32,509 nt of DNA, taken from contig JAFDBG010000009.1 of assembly GCA_019313385.1 (NCBI GenBank), forward strand, positions 1 to 32,509, written 5' to 3'. The number at the start of each line of letters is the position of its first letter. Positions within the stretch are counted from its first letter, which is position 1. The notes under the pieces are model-generated. The model saw only the letters and a list, made by a program, of their open reading frames with translations, was not told where the DNA came from and did no database searches. Below, piece after piece: positions 5,987 to 7,894 of this stretch. This DNA is from Deltaproteobacteria bacterium. Lineage in GTDB: Bacteria > Desulfobacterota > Syntrophia > Syntrophales > UBA2210. A program made the position numbers and the translations under genes.

Positions 5987-6301
5987 TTAGAAAGTAGGCG
6001 TAATTACCGGGGAAGTGTCCCCTACCGAGAACTTTCCCTCTCTGATTTTCTCCACGATTCCTTCCAAGCCTACCTTACTGTCTTCAAATTTTACAGTGAT
6101 TGTTGATGTCGTGGAGTTTAGTTTGAAATCAAGAACACCCTCTGTCTTTTTCAGGATAGAACTTATCCTGGCCCTGCCTGCTCACCCCCAGCATCCGGAA
6201 ACATTTAGGCGATACATCTTCTCGGCGGCAATGGATGCCTGCGAAAAGATCATAAGCGTTGCGCAGAGGAGCATTGCTGTAATAATTTTTCTTATAGTCA
6301 T
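5987..6301 (-). CDS. Exported HMA-domain protein, probable selenoprotein (in-frame TGA at 6182-6184 read as Sec)
   Basis: The frame runs from ATG (6301-6299) to TAA (5989-5987) and is 104 residues long if the single TGA at codon 40 is read through. Residues 1-26 are a Sec signal peptide (basic MTIRK, hydrophobic core, SIAA cleavage site). Residues 29-95 match the beta-alpha-beta-beta-alpha-beta pattern of HMA/MerP metal-binding domains: MYRLNVSGC, then AGRARISSILKKTEGV, LDFKLNSTTS, TITVKFED and GLEGIVEKIREGKFSVGD. The metal motif, usually CxxC, reads C37-W-G-U40, with TGA exactly at the second cysteine. A SECIS-like hairpin follows. GGAGG lies 11 bases before the ATG, and the gene starts 3 bases after the ppiD-like stop, so it is co-transcribed. 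A periplasmic metal or redox role is likely. The alternative is a pseudogene or a sequencing error, but the position of the stop, the open frame after it and the hairpin argue for selenocysteine. Confidence 0.8.
6152..6184 (-). promoter_or_regulatory. Candidate bacterial SECIS element with its UGA codon
   Basis: Reading the minus strand, TGA (6184-6182) is followed by 11 bases and then CAGGATA, loop AGTTC, TATCCTG: a perfect 7-bp stem with a 5-base loop. The UGA-to-loop distance is 18 bases and a G sits at loop position 2. Both fit the published bacterial SECIS pattern (apical loop roughly 16-37 bases after UGA, G in the first two loop positions), which recruits SelB with Sec-tRNA. There is no T-run after it, so it is not a terminator. 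Confidence 0.7.
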
Positions 6302-6304
6302 TTG

Positions 6305-7894
6305 TTAAAGATCCTCCACTCTTTTGAGTATTTTCAGCTTTCCTTTGCTGAACATGTCTTCCCTTGTCCCCTCCAGCCATGACAGGAGGTGTCTTTCTTC
6401 TTTAAACCTGAGGATATAATCTTTTATGGAGCCTTTATTTTCCTCCCATTCTTTTTCGTCCAGCTTGCCCTCTTCCTTAAACCTTATTACAATATATTTT
6501 CCATTGACAAAGAAGACATTGTCAGGGAGGGGCTCTTTCTCGGACATCCTGATGAGGGCTTCTTCCAGTTCCTGGGAGTAGCCGATTTTCGGTATGCTGG
6601 GACCAGGCAGAAACAATCCGGTTTCCGACACCTTCAGACCTTTATCTCTGGAGAGCTTCGCCATATCCATTCCATTCTTCAGATGGCCAAGTATGTCTTC
6701 GGCCTCCTTCTTGGACAACTTTATGGATTCACTCTCTGTGTAACTCTTTTCAACCTTCTTCGCGACTTCCCTGAGTTCGGGTATATAAGAAGGTTTCAGC
6801 GATACAAGCTTGAATATGTAGTGTCCGCTGTTGTTGGAAAAGACGCGTCCCAGATCTCCTTCTTCCAGATTGAATACATATTCGCCCAGATCCTGAATGC
6901 CTGTTAATTGACCGGTTAGTGGGATACCGCGGAAGAATTCTGATGTCTCTATCGCGAGGCCCTTCCCCCGGGCATACTCCTCAAAGTTTTCCTCCTGGTA
7001 GATCGTATCGTGCGCCCTCCTTGCCTCTCCAAAGGCCGCGTCCGTACCCTTTGTTGATTTCAACCTGGAGACAATTCTGCTTCTTACTTCCGGCAGGGGT
7101 TTTGTCTTTCCGTTATCTTCGAAATCGCCTTTGTGATAGTCGTAATATTCCTCTATCTCTTCGTCTGATATATCAAAAGAGTCAGCGAAAGATTCCCCCT
7201 TGAAGGCGATGTACTCGATAACTGCCCTTTGCGGTATTCGGAATGCCTCACCATGTTCTTTAAGATATCTTTCAAGATCTTCTTCGGGGGGCTGTGCCTT
7301 GGCCTTGAGATCTACCTCTACAAAGTTTATATTGATCTTTCTGTTCTGTGTATTGTAGATGTCGCGGACTTCTTTATCGGACACCTTTACCGACTCCTTG
7401 ATAAGCCTTTCCAGTTTTCCTGCTTTTAGCGCCCTTCTCTGAGTGATCTCAAAATCCTCCGGCGTCATCCGCTGATACCGAAGGACTCGCTGGTACAGCT
7501 TATCGTCGAAGACGCCATTTCTCTGGAAAGCCGGATAGGAGAGAATGAATGTCTTCAGTTCATCGTCGCTTACGTCCAGTTTGAGATCGTCGGCTTTTGA
7601 CAGGATTATCGACCGATTTATGAGACTGTCGAATACCTGTTGTTTCGGGTTCATTTTTTTGAGCAGATCGTCGGTAAGATTGTCGCCATATCGCTGACGA
7701 TAGAAGTCCAGCAGATTCTGGTACTCCGTTCTGAATTCTGCGTAGGCTATCCGTGATCCGTCGATTTCAGCGATAGTTTCAGTTGCCTGTCTTCCCCGCA
7801 TGGATCCAAAGTAAAAGACGAAGACAAGGATAATGATACCCAGCACGACCTTCATCAGCCAGTTTTTGGCGTGTATCCGCATTAATTGAAGCAT
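6305..7894 (-). CDS. PpiD/SurA-like membrane-anchored periplasmic folding chaperone
   Basis: A 529-residue protein with one N-terminal membrane anchor (about residues 13-31, VVLGIIILVFVFYFG) after a short basic cytoplasmic end; the rest is periplasmic. The SurA_N/PpiD-type helical chaperone region occupies about residues 35-170 (EIDGSRIAYAEFRTEYQNLL, QQVFDSLINRSIIL, AFQRNGVFDDKLYQRVL). The middle and C-terminal parts are charged and helical with a parvulin-like segment (IPLTGQLTGIQDLGEYVFNL, GHYIFKLV). The isomerase site looks poorly conserved, as in PpiD. It probably assists folding of proteins leaving the Sec translocon. The gene is divergent from mreB, and the HMA selenoprotein gene begins 3 bases after its stop. 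E. coli PpiD is about 620 residues, so this is a shorter form. Confidence 0.82.
   Translation of the reverse strand: MLQLMRIHAKNWLMKVVLGIIILVFVFYFGSMRGRQATETIAEIDGSRIAYAEFRTEYQNLLDFYRQRYGDNLTDDLLKKMNPKQQVFDSLINRSIILSKADDLKLDVSDDELKTFILSYPAFQRNGVFDDKLYQRVLRYQRMTPEDFEITQRRALKAGKLERLIKESVKVSDKEVRDIYNTQNRKININFVEVDLKAKAQPPEEDLERYLKEHGEAFRIPQRAVIEYIAFKGESFADSFDISDEEIEEYYDYHKGDFEDNGKTKPLPEVRSRIVSRLKSTKGTDAAFGEARRAHDTIYQEENFEEYARGKGLAIETSEFFRGIPLTGQLTGIQDLGEYVFNLEEGDLGRVFSNNSGHYIFKLVSLKPSYIPELREVAKKVEKSYTESESIKLSKKEAEDILGHLKNGMDMAKLSRDKGLKVSETGLFLPGPSIPKIGYSQELEEALIRMSEKEPLPDNVFFVNGKYIVIRFKEEGKLDEKEWEENKGSIKDYILRFKEERHLLSWLEGTREDMFSKGKLKILKRVEDL

What the first reader, a model, noticed from the sequence alone, without database searches (positions are those of the whole stretch)
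5987..6301. Hidden selenoprotein: exported HMA domain with C-x-x-U in place of C-x-x-C
Seen: an intact start, signal peptide and complete HMA fold in one frame, interrupted only by TGA at codon 40, which sits exactly at the second metal-binding cysteine (C37-W-G-U40). The frame stays open for 64 further codons of HMA-like sequence. Known: selenocysteine often replaces a redox or metal-binding Cys, and Desulfobacterota are rich in selenoproteins. Inferred: a periplasmic selenolate-based metal or redox protein. Standard gene calling would miss it or truncate it at residue 39. I cannot tell from memory whether this exact family has been described.
Basis: partly seen in the sequence, partly recalled or inferred. 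Interest (0 to 1): 0.9.

Follow-up and report, generated by a model that had tools for sequence, protein, structure and literature searches.

The report
Exported selenoprotein with metal-chaperone fold
A small exported protein that gene finders would cut short at an in-frame TGA is a real selenium-containing protein: two thirds of the sampled relatives carry the same TGA at the same place, followed by the RNA hairpin that makes ribosomes insert selenocysteine, and the family appears in no selenoprotein catalogue I could check.

Summary
It is almost certainly a selenoprotein. In the 155 sampled genomes of its class, 101 carry the gene with one in-frame TGA. In the 90 loci read in full the TGA always falls in the same motif (80 CxxU, 7 CxU); only 3 paralogues have Cys, and on the tree they nest inside the Sec forms. 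A hairpin 11-30 bases after the TGA is conserved, with compensatory changes in 5 of 7 pairs and extreme codon bias (AGG in 77 of 79 at one Arg). The two CxxC paralogues lack it. The genome has selA, selB, selD and tRNA-Sec. The model has an HMA fold, closest to Atx1, MerP and CopZ. One correction: without gaps, Cys37 sits at the HMA Met position and Sec40 between the two canonical metal Cys positions. Function is open. MerT occurs in only 2 of 155 genomes and mer operons were not seen. PpiD, a Sec-DsbC, a thioredoxin fusion and a disulfide reductase occur next to some members. I lean slightly to periplasmic selenol/thiol exchange over soft-metal binding. The family is absent from the 2026 list of 119 families and from NCBIfam.

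The parts
5987..6301 (-). Selenoprotein gene, 104 aa plus TAA stop; ATG at 6301, Sec codon 40
6313..6317 (-). Shine-Dalgarno-like GGAGG, inside the 3' end of the upstream gene
   Evidence: sequence around the ATG
6224..6301 (-). Predicted signal peptide, residues 1-26 (positive N-terminus, hydrophobic core, ASIAA|EK); no signal-peptide predictor was available
   Evidence: sequence; helix 4-19 in the model; same layout in the family
6029..6226 (-). HMA-fold domain, residues 26-91
   Evidence: Pfam HMA; phmmer; AlphaFold2 and Foldseek
6191..6193 (-). Cys37 codon, invariant in the family alignment
6182..6184 (-). TGA read as selenocysteine (Sec40)
6152..6170 (-). Bacterial SECIS-like hairpin CAGGATA-AGTTC-TATCCTG, 11 bases after the TGA codon
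6305..7894 (-). Upstream gene in the same direction, PpiD-like periplasmic chaperone (SurA_N and Rotamase_2), 3 bases before the selenoprotein ATG; probable operon

Best explanation
It is a genuine selenoprotein: an exported, HMA-fold (MerP/CopZ-like) small protein of what are most likely Syntrophales. SelB and tRNA-Sec decode the UGA with the help of a hairpin just downstream that also encodes Arg-Ile-Ser/Gly-Ser-Ile-Leu. The mature protein keeps one functional pair, Cys37 and Sec40, at the turn between strand 1 and helix 1. The most likely action, inferred and not shown, is that this pair cycles between selenol/thiol and a selenenylsulfide, exchanging with thiols of periplasmic proteins as part of protein folding or thiol homeostasis. 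In this genus it would be co-expressed with the PpiD foldase. The Sec step is about 0.97 likely; the redox reading over metal binding is about 0.5 against 0.35. The confidence below is for the whole statement.
For: Sec: the same TGA column in 101 of 155 class genomes; 87 Sec against 3 Cys in loci read in full. The hairpin forms 96% of pair cells, has 5 of 7 pairs with compensatory changes, 0 of 500 shuffles as good, and collapses when slid. At fixed positions Arg is AGG in 77 of 79 members and Ile is ATA in 59 of 60, against 15% and 17% elsewhere in the same genes. The two CxxC paralogues fold at only -3.8 and -2.7 kcal/mol there. Sec machinery. Redox lean: PpiD operon in the window genus and a sister genus; an adjacent DsbC with a Sec active site, DPDUPYC (L070); a CxU member fused to a thioredoxin-fold domain (L120; similar C-terminus in L083); an adjacent pyridine nucleotide-disulfide oxidoreductase (L058). 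No residue is conserved at the canonical metal Cys positions in the ungapped register, and MerT is nearly absent.
Against: The HMA fold is overwhelmingly a metal-binding fold and MerP is the closest named family (44 of 45 members match its model, though weakly). Each thiol-machinery neighbour occurs in few genomes; in more than 50 genomes the gene stands alone between maf/yggS and a mannose-1-phosphate guanylyltransferase gene, with no functional hint. No selenium incorporation or activity was measured.
Confidence: 0.48

Rival explanations
1. Selenoprotein that works like MerP or CopZ: Cys37 and Sec40 clamp a soft metal ion in the periplasm as chaperone, buffer or trap, but not as part of a mer operon.
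For: HMA fold, best matches Atx1, MerP and CopZ; MerP model weakly matches 44 of 45 members and shares the VTFDDxKT stretch; other HMA selenoproteins exist (NF041115, NF045683); in G018 a Sec-containing metal ATPase lies about 3.4 kb away on the same contig.
Against: MerT in only 2 of 155 class genomes and not in this one; canonical Cys positions not conserved in the ungapped register, and both CxxU and CxU spacings occur; most loci show no metal gene next to it.
Confidence: 0.35
2. The TGA is a real stop: a 39-residue leader-like peptide or a decaying pseudogene.
For: TGA is an ordinary stop here: 10 of 28 genes in the window end with it.
Against: Purifying selection after the TGA, one TGA and no other stop in homologues across many families of the order, conserved hairpin and codon bias.
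Confidence: 0.02
3. Assembly or sequencing error (TGC or TGT in reality).
For: The window is from a draft assembly of 138 contigs.
Against: Same TGA in about a hundred independent assemblies, among them one single-contig genome of 3,179,300 bases (G073).
Confidence: 0.005

Closest known systems
MerP, periplasmic mercury-binding protein (TIGR02052; PDB 1osd, 1afi)
   Same: Exported single HMA domain of about 100 residues; similar sequence, including the VTFDDxKT stretch
   Different: 21.7 bits against a cut-off of 92.55; GMTCxxC replaced by GCxxU, shifted two residues or with compensating indels; no MerT partner
UxxU metal-binding selenoprotein (NF041115; 'putative mercuric reductase' in PMC13188914)
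   Same: HMA-like selenoprotein known from Deltaproteobacteria
   Different: Two Sec residues (UxxU; PMC13188914). A UxxU sequence here, GMIUPAU in L155, has both Sec at the canonical Cys places (its assignment to NF041115 was not tested). Ours has one Sec, another register, and scores 15.6 against 95 bits
MerT/CopZ fusion-like heavy-metal transport selenoprotein (NF045683)
   Same: Selenoprotein with a CopZ-like part; weak match in 7 of 45 members
   Different: By its name a MerT-type transporter fusion; ours is a small soluble exported domain
Sec-containing 'mercuric transport protein MerP' of the Global Ocean Sampling survey (PMC2398784)
   Same: Name suggests an HMA-type selenoprotein; 2 sequences, no Cys homologues listed
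   Different: Motif and sequence not shown in the text held, so identity cannot be tested; it may be an earlier sighting

Membership tests
Bacterial selenoprotein | In-frame UGA conserved in homologues or replaced by Cys | tested here: met
   87 TGA and 3 TGT in the same motif
Bacterial selenoprotein | SECIS hairpin just after the UGA | tested here: met
   no SECIS-specific program was available
Bacterial selenoprotein | selA, selB, selC, selD in the genome | tested here: met
Bacterial selenoprotein | Selenium shown in the protein | not testable with these tools
   needs 75Se labelling or mass spectrometry
HMA domain (PF00403) | Score over the curated cut-off | tested here: met
   30.7 against 24.8 bits; 21 of 45 members match at E <= 0.01
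HMA domain (PF00403) | Beta-alpha-beta-beta-alpha-beta fold | tested here: met
   model mean pLDDT 71.5, domain about 72-85; Foldseek E 4e-5 to Atx1, 9e-5 to MerP
HMA domain (PF00403) | MxCxxC metal motif in the loop before helix 1 | tested here: inconclusive
   ungapped: Cys at the Met place, Sec between the Cys places; gapped: CxxU on CxxC
MerP (TIGR02052) | Score over the equivalog cut-off | tested here: not met
   21.7 against 92.55 bits
MerP (TIGR02052) | MerT partner / mer operon | tested here: not met
   no MerT in this genome (control silent); 2 of 155 in the class; no mer genes seen adjacent in the window
UxxU metal-binding selenoprotein (NF041115) | Score over cut-off and two Sec | tested here: not met
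   15.6 against 95 bits; one Sec

The most novel reading that the evidence does not exclude
A selenium-based thiol-exchange protein built on a metal-chaperone fold instead of a thioredoxin fold: within this order Sec is the ancestral state, the metal-site register has moved, and the protein works with periplasmic folding factors (PpiD, DsbC, thioredoxin domains).
Probability: 0.35. Interest if true: 0.75.

Novelty: new variant of a known kind. Interest (0 to 1): 0.62.

Why it matters
It adds a widespread, probably uncatalogued selenoprotein family to organisms central to syntrophic degradation; ordinary annotation would truncate or miss it. It is almost always Sec, with Cys forms derived, the reverse of the usual Cys-to-Sec trend (PMC1794560). 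The deep-Sep authors say their method may not identify selenoproteins that lack Cys homologues (PMC12013277), which may explain the omission. It also makes a clean test case for what Sec does on a metal-chaperone fold.

Tried and rejected
The plus strand was translated first and is not coding. Rfam found nothing in the window, so SECIS evidence was built from the family. A nonsense mutation, pseudogene, sequencing error or reassigned UGA code was rejected: TGA ends 10 of 28 window genes, selection continues after the TGA, and the pattern repeats across the order. Membership in MerP and in UxxU NF041115 was rejected on cut-offs. A protein-pattern scan of genome contigs found only three same-genus relatives. 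The original O. algarvensis paper and the two Haft papers are not held. Three same-genus genomes lack a detectable copy (G106, G107, G108).

Full report
WHAT IS THERE. The feature is on the minus strand, 6301..5987. The frame starts with ATG, has GGAGG 11 bases before it, and lies 3 bases after the stop codon of a PpiD-like gene in the same direction. It encodes 104 residues with one TGA at codon 40 (6184-6182): a signal-peptide-like start (residues 1-26), then an HMA domain (Pfam 30.7 bits, cut-off 24.8). The downstream gene is a convergent HI0933-type flavoprotein.

WHICH ORGANISM. Three same-genus contigs in genome contigs are titled Deltaproteobacteria. The class has a single order in the sample and contains a one-contig genome of 3,179,300 bases, the size I remember for Syntrophus aciditrophicus SB. 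'Syntrophales' in this report is therefore an inference, not a tool result.

IS THE TGA SELENOCYSTEINE? (1) Homologues. In 155 whole genomes of the class, 110 have a match to the protein, and 101 carry a form with a single in-frame TGA. 91 places were read in full; one is a metal ATPase. Of the other 90, 87 have TGA and 3 have TGT (Cys) in the same motif: 80 CxxU, 7 CxU, 2 CxxC and 1 CxC. Two of the three Cys genomes also carry a CxxU gene, and the third (G086) carries CxxU and CxU genes. On a tree the Cys forms nest inside Sec forms, so Cys looks derived (few columns, many forks weak). (2) RNA. The 64 distinct CxxU sequences align without gaps after the TGA. A 7-pair hairpin at columns 15-21/27-33 pairs in 96.2% of cells, 5 pairs show changes on both sides, no shuffle of 500 is as good, and slid structures fall to 25-50%. 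MFE beats synonymous-codon shuffles at this place (mean z -1.27) more than at three control places (-0.24 to -0.45). Codon choice is extreme: Arg at +5 is AGG in 77 of 79 and Ile at +6 is ATA in 59 of 60, against 15% and 17% elsewhere in these genes. The two CxxC paralogues lack the hairpin (-3.8 and -2.7 kcal/mol). The GG of the loop falls at the same distance from UGA as I remember for the E. coli fdhF SECIS (memory, not tested). (3) Machinery. tRNA-Sec 77.2 bits, SelA 601.5, SelB 349.1, SelD 383.2 and itself with a TGA, all over cut-off. In the class, 137 of 155 genomes have selA. The ten Sec-form genomes without a selA hit are drafts listed at 67-94% completeness, and the one near-complete genome without selA, G145, has no Sec form. 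(4) Selection. Beyond the hairpin dN/dS is about 0.1-0.6 among close relatives. Together these leave very little room for a true stop.

WHAT PROTEIN IS IT? An AlphaFold2 model from four sequences (mean pLDDT 71.5; domain blocks about 72-85) has strands 27-35, 56-62, 67-73 and 92-99 and helices 39-52 and 76-88. Foldseek's best PDB matches are Atx1 (4.2e-5), oxidized MerP (9.1e-5) and CopA/CopZ domains. phmmer aligns residues 26-89 to B. subtilis CopA without gaps: VSGCWGUAGRARI against VSGMTCAACAARI. In that register Cys37 replaces Met, and Sec40 lies between the canonical Cys places, which are mostly Ala, Ser, Gly or Thr in the family. The distance from the Gly before Cys to the Gly at the end of helix 1 is 19 in all 86 members where it could be read, as in CopA. 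A profile alignment to MerP instead puts CxxU on CxxC with two-residue gaps on either side. Invariant residues are Cys37, Arg45 and Leu50; Gly36, Sec/Cys40, Ile49, Gly55, Asp74 and Ile82 are nearly so.

CONTEXT. In the window genus and a sister genus the gene follows ppiD; in more than 50 genomes of other families it stands between divergent maf/yggS-type genes and a convergent mannose-1-phosphate guanylyltransferase-type gene (these gene names are from my reading of the sequences). Less common settings are informative. In G010 it follows, by 34 bases, a DsbC whose active site is itself DPDUPYC. In G091 (L120) a CxU form is fused to a thioredoxin-fold domain, and G092 has a similar C-terminal extension. 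In G079 it follows a pyridine nucleotide-disulfide oxidoreductase by 33 bases. MerT, the partner of MerP, is found in only 2 of 155 class genomes.

MECHANISM. Shown by computation: conserved Sec codon, SECIS-like hairpin, Sec machinery, HMA fold. Inferred: export (no signal-peptide predictor was available), operon with ppiD, and function. Two readings remain. Redox exchange is favoured slightly by the neighbours, by the loss of the canonical Cys positions in the ungapped register, and by tolerance of CxxU and CxU spacing. Soft-metal binding is favoured by the fold and the MerP similarity. I put 0.5 on redox, 0.35 on metal and 0.15 on anything else.

BREADTH. Outside the class, TGA forms appear sparsely in other lineages of the phylum: L145, L146 and L148 are CxU-type, L150 and L151 have Val in place of Cys. 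Other phyla were not searched with this profile.

NOVELTY. The 2026 inventory of 119 prokaryotic selenoprotein families (PMC13188914) lists UxxU metal-binding protein, MerT-type and ATPase selenoproteins, but no exported single-HMA CxxU protein. NCBIfam of June 2026 has no model that covers it. The GOS survey mentions two Sec 'MerP' sequences without a motif (PMC2398784), so a partial earlier sighting cannot be excluded, and several key papers could not be read. I therefore call it a new variant of a known kind.

Noticed in passing
L070:2198-2986 (G010): DsbC-like disulfide isomerase with Sec in its active site (DPDUPYC), 34 bases upstream of a CxxU gene.
   Followed up: partly
L120:2603-3337 and L083 (G091, G092): CxU member fused to a thioredoxin-fold domain (Pfam match for L120; L083 seen by similar sequence).
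   Followed up: partly
L150, L151 (G260, G282): Homologues with Val in place of the invariant Cys (PGVVU), leaving Sec alone; not compatible with a simple two-ligand or selenenylsulfide site.
   Followed up: no
L155 (G177): Exported HMA protein with GMIUPAU: both canonical Cys are Sec, a different Sec register from the family studied.
   Followed up: no
L113 (G018): Metal-transporting ATPase with GMTUASC, its first HMA Cys replaced by Sec, on the same contig as a CxxU member.
   Followed up: no
L059, L071, L101 (G086): One genome holds three paralogues: CxxU, CxU and a Cys form (CxC).
   Followed up: partly
G106, G107, G108 (same genus): No detectable copy although two of the genomes are listed as 97-98% complete: loss or assembly gap.
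   Followed up: partly
L131 (G000:C119:5489-6409): The genome's SelD is itself a selenoprotein (one in-frame TGA).
   Followed up: no
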